The translations under genes were made by a program, and so were the position numbers. Positions 1,363-7,667 of a DNA stretch of 64,000 bases are shown here, one piece after another (the first letter of the stretch is position 1; every line of letters begins with the position of its first letter). The DNA comes from Desulfoferula mesophila. GTDB lineage: Bacteria > Desulfobacterota > Desulfarculia > Desulfarculales > Desulfarculaceae. Below the pieces are notes generated by a model, which was not told where the DNA came from, made no database searches, and worked only from the letters and a program-made list of their open reading frames with translations. The stretch spans positions 3,673,501 to 3,737,500 of the forward strand of contig NZ_AP028679.1 in assembly GCF_037076455.1 (NCBI RefSeq), in the 5' to 3' direction.

Positions 1363-1398
1363 GGACCACACATTGCTGTGTATCGGGAGGTTTTTAAA

Positions 1399-2706
1399 AT
1401 GGCCAATTACCCCACGGAAACCCTGTTGTCTTGGAGCAAAGCCAAGGAGATCAGGGAGACCTATTACAAAAACTACGCCGCCGCCCACGACAAGGGCGGC
1501 ATCCGCTGGGTGGGCGGAGCCTGGACTTTCGACGCGGTGCCCGCCGGGTTGGGGGGCAACGTCTACTCCCTGACCAGTGAGCCCTACGGCGCTTCCTGCG
1601 CCTTTAACAAGGACTTCTCCACCCGGGCCATGGAGGCGGCCGAGACCGCCGGCTACGCCCGGGACCTGTGCGCCTACATGCGCAACTACTGGGGCTCCAT
1701 CCTCATGGACGAGTACGCCTTTGGCGGCCCCTTCCCCAAGCCGGACTTCATCTGGCAGGACCACATCTGCTGCTCCCACGCCAAGTGGTACCAGGTGGTC
1801 AGCGAGTTGGAGGGCGGCATCCCCATGTTCTGCGTGGACGTGGCGGTGGGCCCGGCGGAGCCCTTCGGGACGCTCACCGACTCCAAGATCGACTACGTGA
1901 CCGGGCAGATCCTGGACGGCATCGAGTGGCTGGAAAAGACCACGGGGCGCACCTACGACGACGAGCTGTTCATCGAGGCCTGTTGGAACGACTTCCGCAG
2001 CACCTCCAGGTGGGCCCAGGTCTGCGAGCTGAACAAGGCCGTGCCCGCGCCCCTGGACGAGAAGACCATGTACTCCCTGTACGTGCTGGCCACCCTGCAA
2101 AAGTCCTGGGGCGTGGTGGCCGACTACTATGACGAACTCTACGACGAGGTCAAGGACCGGGTGGAGCGGGGCATCGCCGCGGTGCCCAACGAGCAGGCCC
2201 GGGTGATGAGCGACACCCAGCCGCCCTGGAGCGCCCTGAAGCTGTTCCGTTACCTGGAGCAGTACGGCGTGGTCTCGGTGGGCAGCCTCTACACCTTCGG
2301 CCTGGAGGGCATGTGGGACTTCGACCCCGCCACCGGCGACCTGGTGCCCCGGCCCATGCCCGAGAAAAAACCCACCACCCGCGAGGAAGCCGCCCGCGAG
2401 TTGGTACGCTGGCATCTGCACAAGCCCGAGTACCAGCACTTCTACGACTGCGACTACAAGAGTCAGATGATGGTCGCCATCTGCAAAAACTGGGGCCTCA
2501 GCGGGGTGATGTTGCACTACAACCGCGGCTGCGAGGGCCTGAGCCTGGGCATCGCCGAAAACCGCCTGGCCATTCAGGAAGCCGGTTATCCGGTGATGAC
2601 CTTTGAGGGCAACATGGGCGACGAGCGCGAGTTCGACCTGGGCCGCACCATGCAGCGGGTGGACGCCTTCATGGAAACCCTGGGAGTCAAGAAGGTGGCG
2701 GCCTAG
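1399..2706 (+). CDS. bzdO: Benzoyl-CoA reductase, bzd-type, subunit O (BcrB-like)
   Basis: Second catalytic-module subunit, expected to form a heterodimer with BzdN that binds benzoyl-CoA and an Fe-S cluster. The 435-aa protein has the HgdB/BcrB fold. A cysteine-rich segment [16 protein letters not shown] lies about one third in (near residue 120), and the C-terminal part carries [15 protein letters not shown], the cluster-proximal motif of this family. The ATG at 1399 is preferred over one at 1378 because GGGAGG at 1385-1390 is spaced 8 nt from it. It lies 36 nt after bzdN, so co-transcription and probably stoichiometric expression are expected. Length matches BcrB/BzdO proteins. Confidence 0.87.
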
Positions 2707-2732: not shown

Positions 2733-3518
2733 ATGTATACCGCTGGAATCGACGTCGGAGCCAAGACCGTCAAGATCGTGGTGACCCAAGACGGCAAGAT
2801 AGTGGACCGCCAGATAGTGCCCGCCGGGCAGGACGCCCAGGCGGCCATCGAAGAGGCCTGGCAGAGCCTGGACACCCCCATCGCCGACATCGGCCTTATC
2901 GTGGCCACCGGCTCGGGCCGCAAAAGCACCAAACGGGCCCAGGGCTACGTCACCGAGGTGGCCGCCGCGGCCAAGGGGGCCCAGAAGACCGAACCCGAGG
3001 TGCGCACGGTGGTCGACGTGGGCGCCGAGGAGGGCCGGGCCATTCGCATCGACGAGATGGGCAAGTTGGTGGATTTTGCCATCAACGAGAAATGCGCCGC
3101 CGGAGCCGGGGCCTTCACCGAGGCCATGGCCCGGGCCCTGGAGGTGGATCTGCCCACCTTGGCCGCCATGAGCCTCAGGTCCACGGGCAACGTGGCCATG
3201 AACGCCCAGTGCGCCGTGTTCGCCGAGAGCGAGCTGGTCACCCTGGTGCATTCCAACACCCCCAAGGAGGACATGGCCAAGGCCATCCACGACGCGATCA
3301 GCGACCGCATCGTGTCCATGGTGCGCCGGGTGGGCATGGCCGAAAAGGTGATGCTCATCGGCGGCGTGGCCCTGAACGACGGCTTCGTGGCCTCTCTGGC
3401 CAACGACCTGGAAACCTCGGTCATCGTGCCCCAAGATCCCCAGCTGGTGTCCGCCTTCGGGGCCGCCATCCTGGGCGAGGAGGGCAACTACGCCGAGTCC
3501 CTGTCCGAAACCATCTAA
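2733..3518 (+). CDS. bzdP: Benzoyl-CoA reductase, bzd-type, subunit P (ATPase, BadF/BcrA/D family)
   Basis: One of two ASKHA-fold activator subunits that hydrolyse ATP and drive low-potential electrons from a shared [4Fe-4S] cluster into the BzdNO module. The 261-aa sequence begins with phosphate-binding motif GIDVGAKTVKI, contains VATGSGR near residue 60, and has the family cysteines in NEKCAAGAG (near residue 115) and NAQCAVFAESE (near residue 155), which in this family ligate the bridging cluster. The second phosphate/adenosine motif is LIGGVALNDG. GGGAGG at 2719-2724 supports the start. P rather than Q is assigned by length and order and is an inference. Confidence 0.82.
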   Translation: MYTAGIDVGAKTVKIVVTQDGKIVDRQIVPAGQDAQAAIEEAWQSLDTPIADIGLIVATGSGRKSTKRAQGYVTEVAAAAKGAQKTEPEVRTVVDVGAEEGRAIRIDEMGKLVDFAINEKCAAGAGAFTEAMARALEVDLPTLAAMSLRSTGNVAMNAQCAVFAESELVTLVHSNTPKEDMAKAIHDAISDRIVSMVRRVGMAEKVMLIGGVALNDGFVASLANDLETSVIVPQDPQLVSAFGAAILGEEGNYAESLSETI

Positions 3519-3547: not shown

Positions 3548-4420
3548 ATGGCTGAAGAATTTTGGAGATGGACCGAGTCCCGCTGGACCGATCCCGACAT
3601 CGACTGGAGAAAGGGAGACATCATCACCGGCGGAGTGGACGTGGGCTCGGTGAGCTCCCAGGCGGTGGTCTTCGTGGACGGCCGGCTTTACTGCTACGGC
3701 AACACCCGCACCGGCTCCAACAGCCCAGACAGCGCCCACAAGGCCATGGGGCTGGCCATGGAAGACACCGGCATGAGCCTGGATGATTTGCAATACACGG
3801 TGGGCACCGGCTACGGCCGGGTCAACGTGCCCTTCGGCAACCGGGCCATCACGGAGATCGCCTGCCACGCCAGGGGGGCCAACTTCATGTACGGCCCCAC
3901 GGTGAAGACGGTGCTGGACATGGGCGGCCAGGACTGCAAGGCCATCCACTGCGACCCCCGCGGCAAAGTGACCAACTTTTTGATGAACGACAAGTGCGCC
4001 GCCGGGACCGGCCGCGGCATGGAGGTCTTCGCGGACCTGTTGCAGGTGCCCATCACCCGGATCGGCGAGCTGAGCCTCCAGGTGGAGAAGGAGCCTCCCC
4101 CGGTGTCCAGCACCTGCGTGGTGTTCGCCAAGAGCGAGGCCTCCTCCCTGCTGCGCGAGGGCTGGCCCAAGGAGAAGGTCATCGCCGCCTATTGCTCGGC
4201 CATGGCCCACCGGGTGGTCACCCTGCTGGAGCGCATCGGGGTGGAGGAAGACTTCGCCATCACCGGCGGCATCGCCAAGAACGTAGGGGTGGTGGGGCGC
4301 ATCGAAAAGGAGCTGGGCATCACCGCATTGAAGCCCAAGATCGACACCCAGATAGCCGGCGCGGTGGGCGCGGCCCTGTTCGGCGACGCCCTGGTCAAGA
4401 AAGAGCGCAAGAAGGGCTAG
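3548..4420 (+). CDS. bzdQ: Benzoyl-CoA reductase, bzd-type, subunit Q (ATPase, BadF/BcrA/D family)
   Basis: Second ATPase/activator subunit, 290 aa, partner of BzdP. It has an N-terminal extension rich in Trp and Asp (about 25 residues) before the ASKHA motif GGVDVGSVSSQAV, a feature I associate with BzdQ-type rather than BcrA-type subunits. Other visible motifs are GTGYGRVNVPF, DMGGQDCKAI, cluster-ligand segments NDKCAAGTGRG and TCVVFAKSEA, and ITGGIAKNVGVV. GGGAGG at 3535-3540 lies 7 nt before the ATG at 3548; an earlier ATG at 3541 opens only four codons. The downstream ferredoxin starts 6 nt after the stop, so the two are surely co-transcribed. Confidence 0.86.
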   Translation: MAEEFWRWTESRWTDPDIDWRKGDIITGGVDVGSVSSQAVVFVDGRLYCYGNTRTGSNSPDSAHKAMGLAMEDTGMSLDDLQYTVGTGYGRVNVPFGNRAITEIACHARGANFMYGPTVKTVLDMGGQDCKAIHCDPRGKVTNFLMNDKCAAGTGRGMEVFADLLQVPITRIGELSLQVEKEPPPVSSTCVVFAKSEASSLLREGWPKEKVIAAYCSAMAHRVVTLLERIGVEEDFAITGGIAKNVGVVGRIEKELGITALKPKIDTQIAGAVGAALFGDALVKKERKKG

Positions 4421-4426
4421 GAAAGC

Positions 4427-4717
4427 ATGATCGCCAACTACGGCTATAAGGACGGCAGCGGCGATTACTTCATCGCCATCGACACCGACAAATGCGACGG
4501 CTGCGGCGCTTGCGTGCCGGTGTGCCCCGGCGCGGTGTTTATGGTGATGGACGAAGACCCCAACGACCCGATGCGCGAGGAGCCGGTGGCGGTGGTGGCC
4601 GACGATCAACGCAAGAAGATCAAGTACGCCTGCGCCCAGTGCAAACCGGGCGGCGAACGGAGCCCCTTGCCCTGCGTGGAGGCCTGCCCGGTGGATGCCA
4701 TAGCCCACTCCTGGTAG
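4427..4717 (+). CDS. bzdM: 2x[4Fe-4S] ferredoxin of the benzoyl-CoA reductase cluster (BzdM-like)
   Basis: Small (96 aa) dicluster ferredoxin expected to donate low-potential electrons to the BzdNOPQ reductase. Cluster I ligands are in CDGCGACVPVCPG near residues 24-36. Cluster II uses CAQCKPGGE...CVEACPVDA, with a longer-than-classical loop between the second and third cysteines (roughly residues 67-90), as in Chromatium-type and aromatic-pathway ferredoxins. It starts 6 nt after bzdQ with a weak GGA-type ribosome site overlapping the bzdQ stop, suggesting translational coupling. The gene symbol rests on context and cysteine spacing. Confidence 0.8.
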   Translation: MIANYGYKDGSGDYFIAIDTDKCDGCGACVPVCPGAVFMVMDEDPNDPMREEPVAVVADDQRKKIKYACAQCKPGGERSPLPCVEACPVDAIAHSW

Positions 4718-4741: not shown

Positions 4742-4778
4742 GGGGGGCGGCCGGCTCCGAAGGCCGTCCCCCCTTTTT
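4742..4778 (+). terminator. Rho-independent terminator-like hairpin after bzdM
   Basis: GGGGGGCGGCC (4742-4752) pairs with GGCCGTCCCCCC (4762-4773), with one bulged base, across a 9-nt loop. TTTTT follows at 4774-4778. It lies between the ferredoxin gene and the large reductase gene, so that gene may be expressed at a lower level by read-through or from its own promoter. Confidence 0.75.
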
Positions 4779-4823
4779 ACCTCGCACCTACGCGCGGGGC
4801 CGCGCCGCCCCCTGGGAGGAGCC

Positions 4824-7337
4824 ATGAGCCCGATCAATATTAGCATAGACGGACAGCCGGTGGAGGCCCAGAAAAACGACACCATTCTTGAGGCCGCCCG
4901 CCGGGCCGGAATTTACATCCCCACCATCTGCAACCACCCCGACCTGCCGCCGGGCAAGGGCAAGAAACCGGCTCCGGCGGTGTGGCAGGGCGGCGTCAAA
5001 ATTGAAAACGCCCAGGAGGATGAGCTGGGCGGCTGCGGCCTATGCGTGGTGGAGCTGGCCGGGACGGCCGAGCCCCAACCCGCCTGTAGTACCCCCGTGG
5101 CCGAGGGCATGGTTATAACCACCAGCAGCGAGGCTCTGAACAAGCTGCGCAAGCAAAAGCTCATCCCCATCCTGGCCCGCCATCCCCACGCCTGCCTGGC
5201 CTGCGCCCAGGCGGCGGGCTGCTCGCGCACCCAGTGCTCCTCCAACGTGGCCGAGGCCGAGCGCTGCTGCGAGCAGTTCGGCAACTGCGAGCTGCAAAAG
5301 GTGGTCAACTACCTGGGCATCCACCAGGACACCCCCCGTTGGATTCCCGGCGGCCGGCCCAAGCTCCTGGACGATCCCCTGTACAAACGCGACTACAACC
5401 TGTGCATCGGCTGCACCCGCTGCGTGCGGGCCTGCGAGGACCTGCGCGGGGTGGGGGCTTTGGGCTTCGTATTCGATGAAAACGGCCAGGTGCAGGTGGG
5501 CACCCTGGCCCAGGGCCTGGCCGAGAGCGGCTGCCGCTTTTGCACCGCCTGCGTGGAGGTGTGCCCCACCGGGGCCATCCTGGACCACAAGCTGCCCAGC
5601 GGGGACAAAAGCAAGGCCCTGGTGCCCTGCCGCAGCGCCTGCCCGGCGGAAATCGACGTGCCCGAGTATCTCAGGCTCATCGCCGCCGGGCGGCCGGAGC
5701 AGGCCCTGGCGGTGATCCGCCAACGGGTGCCCCTGCCCGGCGTGCTGGGCCGGGTGTGCGTCCACCCCTGCGAGGACAACTGCCGCCGGGGCTCGCTAAA
5801 CGAGCCCATCAGCATTTGTCTGCTCAAGCGCTACGCCGCCGACCAGGGCAGCGGGGCCTGGAAGGCGCGCCTGGAGCGGCTGCCCGCCACCGGCAAGAAG
5901 GTGGCCGTGGTGGGCGCGGGCCCGGCCGGGCTCAGCGCCGCCTTTTTCCTGGCCCGCAAGGGCCACGCGGTCACCATGCTGGAGGCCGAGGAGCGCCCCG
6001 GCGGCATGCTGCGCTACGGCATCCCCGCCTACCGCCTGCCCCGGGAGGTGCTGGAGTCCGAGATAGGCGACATAGCCGCCCTGGGGGTGGAGATCAACAC
6101 GGGCGTCAAGGTGGAGTCCCTGGAGGAGCTGACGGCCCAGGGCTACGACGCCCTGTTCCTGTCAATGGGAGCCCAGCTTCCGCGGCGCCTTAATATCGAG
6201 GGCGCGGAGCAGCCCTCGGTGCTGTGGGGCCTGGACTTTTTAAAGGCCATCCGCCGGGGCCAAGACCCTCAGGTAGGGCCCAAGGTGGTGGTGGTGGGCG
6301 GCGGCAACGTGGCCATCGACGTGGCCCTGTCCGCCTTGAGGCAGGGAGCCCGAGAGGTGGACCTGGTCTGTCTGGAAAAGCGCGAGGAAATGCCCGCCCA
6401 TCCCTGGGAGGTGGCCCAGGCCGAAGAGGAAGGCGTGCGCGTGCGCAACGCCTGGGGCCCGCTGCGGGTGGCTCCGGACGGCGCGGTCGCCTTCCGCCGC
6501 TGCACGGCCGTGCTCGACCGACAGGGCCGCTTCAACCCCAGCTACGATGACGCCGAGGTCATGGAACTGCCCGCGGACCAGGTGATCATGGCCATCGGCC
6601 AGGCCACGGACCTGGGCCTTCTGGGCGCGGGCGGCGGAGTTGGCGTGGCCCGGGGGCTGATAGCGGCGGACCCCGACACCCTGGCCACGGACGTGGCCGG
6701 GGTGTTCGCCGGGGGCGACGCGGTGGTCATGCCCGGAGCGGTGATCCACGCCATCGCCGCCGGGCGCAGGGCGGCCCGGAGCATGGACGAATACCTGGGC
6801 GGCGACGGGGACATAGACTTCAGCCTGACCCGGCCCGAGCCCCTTAGCCCCCGCCTGGGCCGGGTGGAGGGCTTTGCCTTGCAGCAAAGGGTGGCCCCGG
6901 CCTGGCTGTCCCCGGAGCGGCGCAGCCGGGGCTACGAGGAGACCTGCCAGGGGTTCAACTCCGGGCAAGCCGAGGCCGAGGCCGGGCGCTGCTTGCAGTG
7001 CCAGCTAAGGCTGATGATCAGCCGGGTGCCCGGCCCGCCGGAGCATTTGTTGCCCCTCAACCAAGAGGCGGTAGACGGGGTGCCGGAAAGCGAGGGGGTG
7101 TTCATCCTCTTTGACCCGGAGAAAAACATCCTGGTCATCCAGGGCGCCATGAACCTGCGCGAGGGCCTGAACGAGCGCCTGGAAGGCGGCTCCAGCGCGG
7201 CCTATTTCGAATACGAACCAGACCCCATGTACTCCAAGGCCGAGAGCGAGCGCATCCAGGCCTATCTCCAGCGGCACGGCTCCATGCCGCCGGGCGACGG
7301 CTCCGGCGGCGGGGACGACCTGGACGATCTTTTCTAG
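4824..7337 (+). CDS. bzdV: NAD(P)H-dependent ferredoxin-reducing flavo-Fe-S protein (NuoG-N/GltD-like, BzdV-like)
   Basis: Large 837-aa multidomain electron-transfer protein. In order: an N-terminal [2Fe-2S] ferredoxin fold (C36, C71, C74, C88; an unusually long insert separates the first ligand from CGLC). Then a NuoG-type His/Cys [4Fe-4S] segment (HPHACLACAQAAGC, about 110-155) and a 2x[4Fe-4S] domain (CIGCTRCVRAC near 193 and CRFCTACVEVCP near 235). The rest resembles glutamate synthase small subunit: CRSACPAEIDVPEY near 269, FAD motif VVGAGPAGLSAA near 358, NAD(P) motif VVGGGNVAIDVAL near 487 and CLQCQL near 722. Family knowledge: BzdV-type proteins are proposed to regenerate reduced ferredoxin for benzoyl-CoA reductase. 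GGGAGGA precedes the ATG. An NADH-consuming bifurcating role is possible but not shown. Confidence 0.72.
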   Translation: MSPINISIDGQPVEAQKNDTILEAARRAGIYIPTICNHPDLPPGKGKKPAPAVWQGGVKIENAQEDELGGCGLCVVELAGTAEPQPACSTPVAEGMVITTSSEALNKLRKQKLIPILARHPHACLACAQAAGCSRTQCSSNVAEAERCCEQFGNCELQKVVNYLGIHQDTPRWIPGGRPKLLDDPLYKRDYNLCIGCTRCVRACEDLRGVGALGFVFDENGQVQVGTLAQGLAESGCRFCTACVEVCPTGAILDHKLPSGDKSKALVPCRSACPAEIDVPEYLRLIAAGRPEQALAVIRQRVPLPGVLGRVCVHPCEDNCRRGSLNEPISICLLKRYAADQGSGAWKARLERLPATGKKVAVVGAGPAGLSAAFFLARKGHAVTMLEAEERPGGMLRYGIPAYRLPREVLESEIGDIAALGVEINTGVKVESLEELTAQGYDALFLSMGAQLPRRLNIEGAEQPSVLWGLDFLKAIRRGQDPQVGPKVVVVGGGNVAIDVALSALRQGAREVDLVCLEKREEMPAHPWEVAQAEEEGVRVRNAWGPLRVAPDGAVAFRRCTAVLDRQGRFNPSYDDAEVMELPADQVIMAIGQATDLGLLGAGGGVGVARGLIAADPDTLATDVAGVFAGGDAVVMPGAVIHAIAAGRRAARSMDEYLGGDGDIDFSLTRPEPLSPRLGRVEGFALQQRVAPAWLSPERRSRGYEETCQGFNSGQAEAEAGRCLQCQLRLMISRVPGPPEHLLPLNQEAVDGVPESEGVFILFDPEKNILVIQGAMNLREGLNERLEGGSSAAYFEYEPDPMYSKAESERIQAYLQRHGSMPPGDGSGGGDDLDDLF

Positions 7338-7427: not shown

Positions 7428-7667
7428 GTGACTTGCGCATCCCAACGAGAGGCCCAGCTTTTGGCAGAGGGCTGGGTCAAACAGTTCATGACCAACGAGC
7501 CCCGTTTGAGCGAGGCCGTGGTCGAATACTCCGCGCTGGGCTTTCAGGTGCATCTGGAGCCGGTGGACCCGGCCGCCTGCGCCGCCCAGGGCGGCTGCAC
7601 CGCCTGCTTCGCCGCGCCCGAGGCGGCGGCCCAGTTCAAGATCATCTACACCCGCCGCCCGAAGTAG
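7428..7667 (+). CDS. Small uncharacterised CxxC protein at the end of the bzd block
   Basis: 79-aa protein started by GTG with a near-perfect AGGAGGA (7416-7422) 5 nt upstream, so translation is well supported. It has a single cysteine near the N-terminus and a short motif CAAQGGCTACF around residues 50-60 that could bind a metal or form a disulfide. There is no signal peptide and no membrane segment. It follows the BzdV-like gene by 90 nt on the same strand, so a link to the reductase cluster is likely by context only. I do not recognise a characterised family. Confidence 0.7.
   Translation: MTCASQREAQLLAEGWVKQFMTNEPRLSEAVVEYSALGFQVHLEPVDPAACAAQGGCTACFAAPEAAAQFKIIYTRRPK

What the first reader, a model, noticed from the sequence alone, without database searches (positions are those of the whole stretch)
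4742..7337. Composite NuoG-N/GltD-type reductase behind a terminator in the bzd block
The protein joins a [2Fe-2S] domain with a long insert, a His/Cys cluster, two [4Fe-4S] clusters and an FAD/NAD(P) glutamate-synthase-like module. It sits after a strong hairpin with T-run, so it may be made in lower amounts than the reductase. The number of clusters would suit coupling of NAD(P)H oxidation to low-potential ferredoxin reduction, perhaps with another partner.
Basis: partly seen in the sequence, partly recalled or inferred. Interest (0 to 1): 0.5.

Follow-up and report, generated by a model that had tools for sequence, protein, structure and literature searches.

The report
Electron-feeding protein for benzoyl-CoA reductases
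This gene makes a large iron-sulfur flavoprotein that most likely supplies strongly reducing electrons to the enzymes that break down aromatic rings without oxygen; it carries an unexpected extra domain shaped like a DNA-cutting enzyme but lacking its key residue, and relatives of it sit beside both unrelated kinds of ring-reducing enzyme.

Summary
Window 4824-7337(+) encodes an 837-aa NuoG-N/GltD fusion directly behind bzdNOPQM, the place of BzdV, elsewhere annotated "putative NADPH:ferredoxin oxidoreductase". In 66 of 80 loci, from bacteria and archaea, bzd genes lie within 6.5 kb upstream. Yet relatives also stand beside bam genes of the unrelated class II reductase (L071, L124, L126, L188), and two genomes with bamB keep bzdP-bzdQ-bzdV without bzdNO. 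Best reading: an electron-entry protein for benzoyl-CoA dearomatisation, probably not bifurcating by itself. The hairpin is real, but 17/200 shuffles fold as well and its T-run is lost in a congener.

The parts
4824..7337 (+). bzdV-type reductase, 837 aa (stop included in the coordinates)
   Evidence: ORF; Pfam; relatives in 80 loci, some truncated or frame-broken
4824..5120 (+). [2Fe-2S] domain (C36, C71, C74, C88) with an insert between C36 and C71
   Evidence: Fer2_4; four Cys invariant 68/68
5181..5288 (+). His/Cys cluster region: H120, C124, C127, C155 (NuoG-like) interrupted by an insert with four extra invariant Cys (C133, C138, C148, C149)
   Evidence: 68/68 invariant; assignment of ligands to clusters is inference from the NuoG motif (recalled)
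5376..5579 (+). two [4Fe-4S] clusters, ferredoxin-like (C194-C204, C237-C247)
   Evidence: Fer4_Nqo3/Fer4_7; 68/68 invariant
5625..5846 (+). GltD-type N-terminal Fe-S domain (Fer4_20): C269, C273, C312, C316, C320 and K335 (5826-5828)
   Evidence: K335 aligns without gap to StnC K170; 68/68
5895..6764 (+). FAD/NAD(P)-binding module; nucleotide-specificity motif CLE (residues 516-518, 6369-6377)
   Evidence: Pyr_redox_2; motif
6990..7001 (+). C723-x2-C726 after the FAD module, probably completing one [4Fe-4S] cluster with C269 and C320
   Evidence: 68/68 invariant; pairing is inference
7035..7334 (+). C-terminal GIY-YIG-like domain (DUF7508 relative), acidic LF end
4742..4778 (+). hairpin (11-bp stem, 9-nt loop) followed by C and T5 between bzdM and bzdV
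   Evidence: stem but not T-run kept in L054
235..1362 (+). bzdN (catalytic subunit)
   Evidence: TIGR03190 483.8 bits, cut-off 453.8; start codon at 235 chosen here
1378..2706 (+). bzdO (catalytic subunit)
   Evidence: TIGR03191 638 bits, cut-off 448.6; true start may be later
2733..3518 (+). bzdP-like ATPase subunit
   Evidence: TIGR00241 205.6 bits, cut-off 125.4
3548..4420 (+). bzdQ (ATPase subunit)
   Evidence: TIGR03192 444.8 bits, cut-off 380.2
4427..4717 (+). bzdM, 2x[4Fe-4S] ferredoxin
   Evidence: its neighbour cluster has members in 43 loci, 39 at position -1 to bzdV
7428..7667 (+). 79-aa protein of unknown function, conserved downstream of bzdV
   Evidence: tblastn match of 30 bits or more in 32 of 80 loci; no Pfam family at E<=0.1

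Best explanation
The protein is a BzdV-type pyridine-nucleotide dehydrogenase that feeds electrons into benzoyl-CoA dearomatisation. Shown here: domain anatomy, invariant ligands, gene association with class I (bzd) and, less often, class II (bam) benzoyl-CoA reductases, and a GIY-YIG-like C-terminal domain without the nuclease Arg. Inferred mechanism: NAD(P)H (NADH more likely for this sequence) reduces the FAD of the GltD module; electrons leave singly through the Lys-ligated [4Fe-4S] cluster (K335 site), the second GltD cluster, and the ferredoxin-like and NuoG-like clusters. They pass to the small ferredoxin BzdM, or directly to the activase BzdPQ where no bzdM lies between, and then with ATP to BzdNO. 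The protein alone is probably not bifurcating; the drop to ferredoxin potential must come from elsewhere: a HydBC/BamGH-type or HdrA-type module, a very reduced nucleotide pool, or the ATP-driven step itself. The GIY-YIG-like domain is probably a docking or oligomerisation domain, not a nuclease.
For: Association: 66 of 80 loci with bzd genes within 6.5 kb upstream on the same strand, 43 with all of N, O, P, Q, M (in all but L122 the nearest bzd match starts within about 1.3 kb), in Desulfobacterota, Chloroflexota, Zixibacteria, Asgard archaea, Bathyarchaeota, Thermoplasmata, Planctomycetota, Bacillota and others (titles). In the own genus and family the gene mostly follows bzd: full length in G302 (bzdO over cut-off); no full-length match in 7 relatives without bzdO over cut-off (G053, G196, G340, G015, G089, G118, G146); G172 is an exception (bzdPQ-bzdV, no bzdO over cut-off). 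Class II link: bamBCDEF beside the gene in L124, L126, L188, and bamC-G-H-I - bzdM - bzdV in L071 (L188 BamB and BamC match the solved G. metallireducens proteins at 1042.8 and 276.9 bits). Reduced ferredoxin is the reported donor of class I and the putative donor of class II (PMC11971306, passages; PMC12096430, passages). Fold: best solved matches are the large subunits of NfnABC and StnABC. K335 = StnC K170, 68/68. bzdQ is followed by bzdV without bzdM between in L060, L186, L187.
Against: No biochemistry of any member was found in the papers I could search. Only 1 of 80 loci has NuoE/NuoF-type genes in the sequence held (L071) and 2 of 80 have HdrA/MvhD (L124, L126), so a dedicated bifurcating partner is not general, though many contigs are short. 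An NADH-linked CLE protein coupled to an NADH-linked NuoF module (as in L071, itself CLE) would have no driving force, so either the cofactor call or that partner model is wrong for such members. Two genomes with bzdO over cut-off lack a full-length homologue (G315, G023; G023's bzd contig ends inside bzdQ). Seven loci with at least 2.9 kb upstream have no bzd gene there. A second bzd-like operon of G132 (L061) has no bzdV beside it.
Confidence: 0.6

Rival explanations
1. It is itself an electron-bifurcating NAD(P)H:ferredoxin oxidoreductase of the NfnB kind, with the NuoG-like half as one branch.
For: GltD fold close to NfnB (5jca_L, 4ylf_B); R404, which aligns with StnC R239 and so with the N5 arginine of NfnB (PMC10482914, section 9), is kept in 65 of 68, though StnC has it too; many clusters.
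Against: The cluster next to FAD has Lys in 68/68 where NfnB has Glu (PMC10482914 section 9); that paper describes the StnC FAD as non-bifurcating. NfnA-like partner genes were not searched for.
Confidence: 0.12
2. It runs in the opposite direction: it oxidises surplus reduced ferredoxin to make NAD(P)H during growth on aromatics.
For: Thermodynamically downhill without ATP or partner (general knowledge); the nearest own-genome paralogue (L005, 46-48% over the GltD part) sits before a 2-oxoacid:acceptor oxidoreductase pair, an enzyme whose relatives reduce NAD(P)+ (recalled).
Against: Position behind the ring-reductase genes and their ferredoxin in most loci suggests supply, not drain; this is inference.
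Confidence: 0.15
3. It is a structural or regulatory subunit whose GIY-YIG-like domain binds nucleic acid, coupling redox state to gene expression or repair.
For: GIY-YIG fold; plant Grx-S16 is a fusion of such a domain with a redox protein (2lwf; the fusion is recalled).
Against: Catalytic Arg absent in 80/80, second-motif Tyr in only 16/80; the end is acidic (DDLF in 60/80); the rest of the protein is a complete electron-transfer chain.
Confidence: 0.05

Closest known systems
BzdV of Aromatoleum/Azoarcus sp. CIB (annotated putative NADPH:ferredoxin oxidoreductase)
   Same: name and operon role; gene in a bzd cluster with ferredoxin bzdM (PMC5658619, PMC5736913, PMC8163825, passages)
StnC of Sporomusa ovata StnABC / large subunits of NfnABC (8oh5_C, 9bov_A, 9n5u_A)
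   Same: [2Fe-2S]-like start, GltD module with Lys at the FAD-proximal cluster, NuoG-like clusters
   Different: in these the GltD module is inserted between the [2Fe-2S] part and the 4Fe-4S part and StnC ends in an Fdh-like domain (PMC10482914); here GltD comes after both and is followed by a GIY-YIG-like domain; YRR replaced by CLE; four extra Cys
NfnB / GltD / DPD FAD-NADPH module
   Same: fold, Fer4_20 domain, dinucleotide motifs
   Different: Lys instead of the Glu ligand of NfnB; CLE instead of YRR
GIY-YIG domains of UvrC and plant Grx-S16
   Same: fold (Z 8.4-10.7), sequence profile (hhalign probability 96.7 over 46 columns)
   Different: nuclease Arg lost in 80/80; acidic C-terminus
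BamGHI / HoxEFU modules of class II benzoyl-CoA reductase and hydrogenases
   Same: NuoG-like small subunit BamI resembles the N-terminal third (22-31% identity)
   Different: separate small subunits without GltD module

Membership tests
BzdV (reductase of bzd clusters) | gene in a bzdNOPQ(M) cluster | tested here: met
   window; 66 of 80 homologous loci
BzdV (reductase of bzd clusters) | sequence orthology to the Aromatoleum BzdV | not tested
   that sequence was not at hand; original paper not held
BzdV (reductase of bzd clusters) | NADPH:ferredoxin oxidoreductase activity | not testable with these tools
   no assay; motif YRR absent in this sequence
StnC-type subunit | Lys ligand at the FAD-proximal [4Fe-4S] cluster | tested here: met
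   K335 = K170, 68/68
StnC-type subunit | GltD module inserted within the NuoG-like domain, Fdh-like C-terminus | tested here: not met
   domain orders
StnC-type subunit | HydBC-like (NuoE/NuoF) partner genes alongside | tested here: inconclusive
   1 of 80 loci (L071); own genome has such genes elsewhere (L184)
NfnB (bifurcating) | Glu ligand at the FAD-proximal cluster | tested here: not met
   Lys in 68/68
NfnB (bifurcating) | NfnA partner subunit | not tested
   no search made
NuoG N-terminal module | [2Fe-2S] Cys4, His-Cys3 [4Fe-4S], two ferredoxin-like [4Fe-4S] | tested here: met
   (motif spacing recalled); the His-Cys3 region carries an extra insert and its Pfam match is below cut-off
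GIY-YIG superfamily (C-terminal domain) | fold | tested here: met
   VIA Z 10.7 (2lwf), 10.1 (1yd6), 9.2 (1ycz)
GIY-YIG superfamily (C-terminal domain) | sequence profile similarity | tested here: met
   hhalign to UvrC-like set 96.7, E 3.4e-10 over 46 columns; PF24348 in 80/80 at E<=0.1, this window's own at 21.8 bits (cut-off 26), PF01541 in 4/80
GIY-YIG nuclease | catalytic Arg and YIG Tyr | tested here: not met
   Arg 0/80, Tyr 16/80 at the hhalign-aligned columns
Intrinsic terminator (4742-4778) | stable hairpin followed by U-run, beyond chance, conserved | tested here: inconclusive
   17/200 shuffles as stable; T-run not kept in congener

The most novel reading that the evidence does not exclude
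BzdV with BzdM is a class-independent electron-entry unit for anaerobic ring reduction, serving both the ATP-dependent class I and the tungsten class II reductases. In genomes that keep bzdP-bzdQ-bzdV without bzdNO but have bamB, BzdPQ is an ATP-driven booster that lowers the potential of electrons for the class II enzyme or another acceptor; the GIY-YIG-like domain is the repurposed docking part that lets one reductase serve unrelated acceptors.
Probability: 0.12. Interest if true: 0.75.

Novelty: new variant of a known kind. Interest (0 to 1): 0.5.

Why it matters
Where strict anaerobes get the very low-potential electrons for breaking aromatic rings is an open question for both reductase classes. 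One conserved protein, found beside both classes and in bacteria and archaea, makes the question testable by expression and assay of one or two genes. The GIY-YIG-like domain would be an unusual case of a nuclease fold fixed in an electron-transfer enzyme, and the CLE motif predicts NADH where the annotation says NADPH.

Tried and rejected
Bifurcation by the protein itself was considered and rated low because of the Lys ligand. A dedicated NuoEF partner as a general rule was rejected: 1 of 80 loci. An exclusive link to class I was rejected after bam genes were found beside the gene in four loci. The C-terminal domain as an active nuclease was rejected. Whether invariant E807 is the nuclease metal-binding Glu could not be settled: the profile alignment stops before it. 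With the tail alone, phmmer against the PDB gave 2lwf at E 0.03 behind a 22-residue match to 8fje_A (E 3e-5) that I did not follow. Rows at Z 4.4 or less were ignored as weak. A link of CLE/YRR with gene context was looked for by eye and not found: YRR members lie beside bzd, bam and fhs/clpC-like genes alike. PF24348 found only bzdV in the own genome, below cut-off. Literature: three papers for BzdV with benzoyl-CoA reductase, two off-topic ones for GIY-YIG with glutamate synthase, oxidoreductase and domain, none for DUF7508; no passage I saw describes the C-terminal domain, but most subscription papers are not held. Having both reductase classes in one genome is not new: it is reported for Desulfotomaculum gibsoniae (PMC4148979, passages) and, as bzdNOPQ-like and bam clusters, for NaphS2 (PMC2988823, passages).

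Limits: the 80 loci are the best 80 of 151 relatives found with two peptide patterns from the His/Cys region, so close homologues are over-represented and homologues without the pattern are missed; by their equal contig lengths L104 and L105 look like one contig in two records; L067 and L091 look like the same genomes as G302 and G058. A3 (68 rows) is the window, 65 of the 80 loci, L055 and L060; left out were six broken or truncated ones (L094, L113, L114, L123, L129, L146) and nine others for brevity (L084, L086, L090, L103, L105, L112, L120, L132, L139). A4 (80 rows) is the window, 77 of the 80 loci (without L094, L105, L114), L055 and L060; tblastn found the tail in all 80 loci. Gene calls by longest ORF were misleading in GC-rich loci and were replaced by tblastn for the counts (against 47, 96). 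In one search a locus counted if any bzd protein matched above set bit scores; L069, L071 and L122 counted through the ferredoxin alone. Cluster ligands and the electron path are read from sequence; model coordinates could not be inspected.
Full report
Observation. It follows bzdN, bzdO, a bzdP-like gene, bzdQ and a ferredoxin gene. The hairpin at 4742-4772 followed by C and T5 exists; its energy is matched by 17 of 200 shuffles, and in a congener (G302, L054) the stem is kept but the T-run is not. In L055 the 23-nt gap holds no hairpin, and in L052 the gap folds no better than shuffles. A terminator is possible, not shown.

Homologues. A scan of named genomes gave 151 relatives, of which the best 80 were kept. 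tblastn with the window's bzd proteins found bzd genes within 6.5 kb upstream on the same strand in 66 of 80; 43 have N, O, P, Q and M; 7 have under 1 kb of upstream sequence; 7 have at least 2.9 kb and no bzd gene there. Of these last 7, two (L124, L126) have bzdN about 10 kb downstream, the genome of L077 has bzdO elsewhere over the cut-off, and four Chloroflexota (L116, L134, L135, L139) have only weaker bzdO relatives in their genomes, best 185 to 360 bits. In L116, L134 and L135 the gene stands between folD/fhs-like genes and a clpC-like gene, L139 has the fhs-like and clpC-like genes, and L144, whose contig starts 554 bases before, has the clpC-like gene (names read from sequence, not from a family search). 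The record titles span Desulfobacterota, Chloroflexota, Zixibacteria, Asgard archaea, Bathyarchaeota, Thermoplasmata, Planctomycetota, Aminicenantes, Gemmatimonadota and Bacillota. In the window's own phylum, ten of 395 genomes had bzdO at 390 bits or more, seven over the cut-off; a full-length or partial homologue or its C-terminal domain was found in eight (G000, G058, G302, G279, G132, G003, G194, G198), but no full-length one in G315 and G023 (G023's bzd contig ends inside bzdQ).

Class II link. In L124, L126 and L188 the gene lies beside bamB, bamC, bamD, bamE and bamF; in L071 the order is bamC, bamG, bamH, bamI, bzdM, bzdV. L188 is outside the 80; L071 is one of the 66, through bzdM. 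BamB and BamC of L188 match the solved Geobacter metallireducens proteins at 1042.8 and 276.9 bits, and the L124 BamB fragment at 715.4 bits. The names bamD to bamI rest on gene order, on NCBIfam hits to HdrA, HdrC-like, VhuD, NuoE, NuoF and HoxU families and on published descriptions (PMC12016498, passages). The window's own genome also has bamB to bamF at about C1:1.945-1.953 Mb, so it has both reductase classes, as reported for two other sulfate reducers. Two genomes, G172 (same family) and G273, keep bzdP, bzdQ and bzdV in a row without bzdN, bzdO or bzdM beside them and with no bzdO over the cut-off in the assembly, yet have bamB; both also have bamC to bamF, and G172 bamG to bamI. G172 has the same ftsZ-side neighbourhood as the window (judged by eye from translations).

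Cofactors. In the 68 aligned sequences 26 Cys, H120 and K335 never vary. Four of these Cys (133, 138, 148, 149) sit in an insert inside the NuoG-like His/Cys motif (canonical spacing recalled); the alignments to the StnC-type chains resume at residue 149 or 143 after it. C269, C320, C723, C726 and C273, C312, C316, K335 fit the two clusters of GltD-type modules (inference); K335 aligns with K170 of StnC, whose FAD is described as non-bifurcating, and NfnB has Glu there (PMC10482914, section 9 read). The residues that end the second strand of the nucleotide domain are CLE (49), CVE (3), SLE (3) or CME (1) in 56 and YRR in 12 of 68; the five related solved chains whose alignments I saw have YRR, and of these I saw NADPH binding at this site described only for StnC. 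That an acidic residue there favours NADH is general knowledge of Rossmann folds (recalled), not tested. A published extract assay for the related class I enzyme of culture N47 worked best with NADH (PMC12016498, passages), which would fit, but whether its thnG oxidoreductase is a BzdV was not tested.

Structure. The AlphaFold model of the whole protein has mean pLDDT 90.6, with the extra-Cys stretch lower (61 to 80); the closest solved structures are the large subunits of NfnABC and StnABC. These have the GltD module between the [2Fe-2S] part and the 4Fe-4S part, here it follows both, so the fusion is different. Residues 738-837 were modelled alone (pLDDT 75.8): the best matches are the N-terminal domain of plant Grx-S16 (Z 10.7, rmsd 2.5 over 90) and the GIY-YIG domain of UvrC (Z 10.1 to 8.4); the first eleven rows are GIY-YIG proteins by title or recall. 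Sequence agrees: hhalign to UvrC-like domains 96.7, DUF7508 in 80 of 80 tails at E<=0.1; DUF7508 also matches the three UvrC or GIY-YIG proteins scanned, one of them above its cut-off. In a scan of 297 genomes of the phylum with a model of the domain, 22 had a match; the ten strong hits are seven ORFs of 820-877 aa of the bzdV kind and three shorter ones (567, 402, 142 aa), and of thirteen weak hits three were confirmed as GIY-YIG by Pfam or lie in such a set and most others look like UvrC by eye (scanned with Pfam were L158, L163 and L164). The nuclease Arg is absent in 80 of 80 and the YIG Tyr present in 16 of 80, so it is probably not a nuclease. Every tail keeps G758 and E807, and 60 of 80 end in DDLF; a docking role is inference.

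Mechanism. NAD(P)H to FAD to a chain of clusters to BzdM, then BzdPQ with ATP, then BzdNO is the simplest reading; only the anatomy and the gene links are shown. Ferredoxin reduction by NADH is uphill, so a partner or a strongly reduced pool is needed. L071 (BamGH) and L124/L126 (HdrA, MvhD) show candidate partners in 3 of 80 loci; the others show none in the sequence held. Direct transfer from BzdV to BzdPQ is suggested by L060, L186 and L187, where bzdQ is followed by bzdV without a ferredoxin gene between.

Verdict. Ordinary in being the expected reductase of a bzd operon; less ordinary in its fused nuclease-fold domain, extra cysteines, altered nucleotide motif and its presence beside both reductase classes. 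Known by name; no characterisation was found in the papers seen.

Noticed in passing
window 7428-7667: A 79-aa protein of unknown family follows bzdV; relatives occur in 32 of 80 bzdV loci, mostly just downstream.
   Followed up: partly
G000 C1:1940000-1959900 (L195): The window's genome also carries bamBCDEF, i.e. the class II benzoyl-CoA reductase.
   Followed up: partly
L187 (G172) and L186 (G273): bzdP-bzdQ-bzdV without bzdN, bzdO or bzdM beside them, in genomes that have bamB.
   Followed up: partly
G000 C1:752000-764000 (L198): The nearest paralogue of the GltD part (L005) precedes a 2-oxoacid:acceptor oxidoreductase alpha/beta pair and lies near a double-cubane-cluster reductase gene.
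   Followed up: partly
G000 C1:307068-312605 (L184): NuoE, HydB-like NuoF, HoxU/BamI-like and HdrA-like genes in a row, a possible separate bifurcating module.
   Followed up: partly
L116, L134, L135, L139, L144: In some Chloroflexota the bzdV homologue stands beside fhs/folD-like or clpC-like genes; the four scored (not L139) have the YRR motif.
   Followed up: no
Pfam PF24348 (DUF7508): DUF7508 matches GIY-YIG domains of UvrC-like proteins (one of three above its cut-off), so it appears to belong to the GIY-YIG superfamily.
   Followed up: partly
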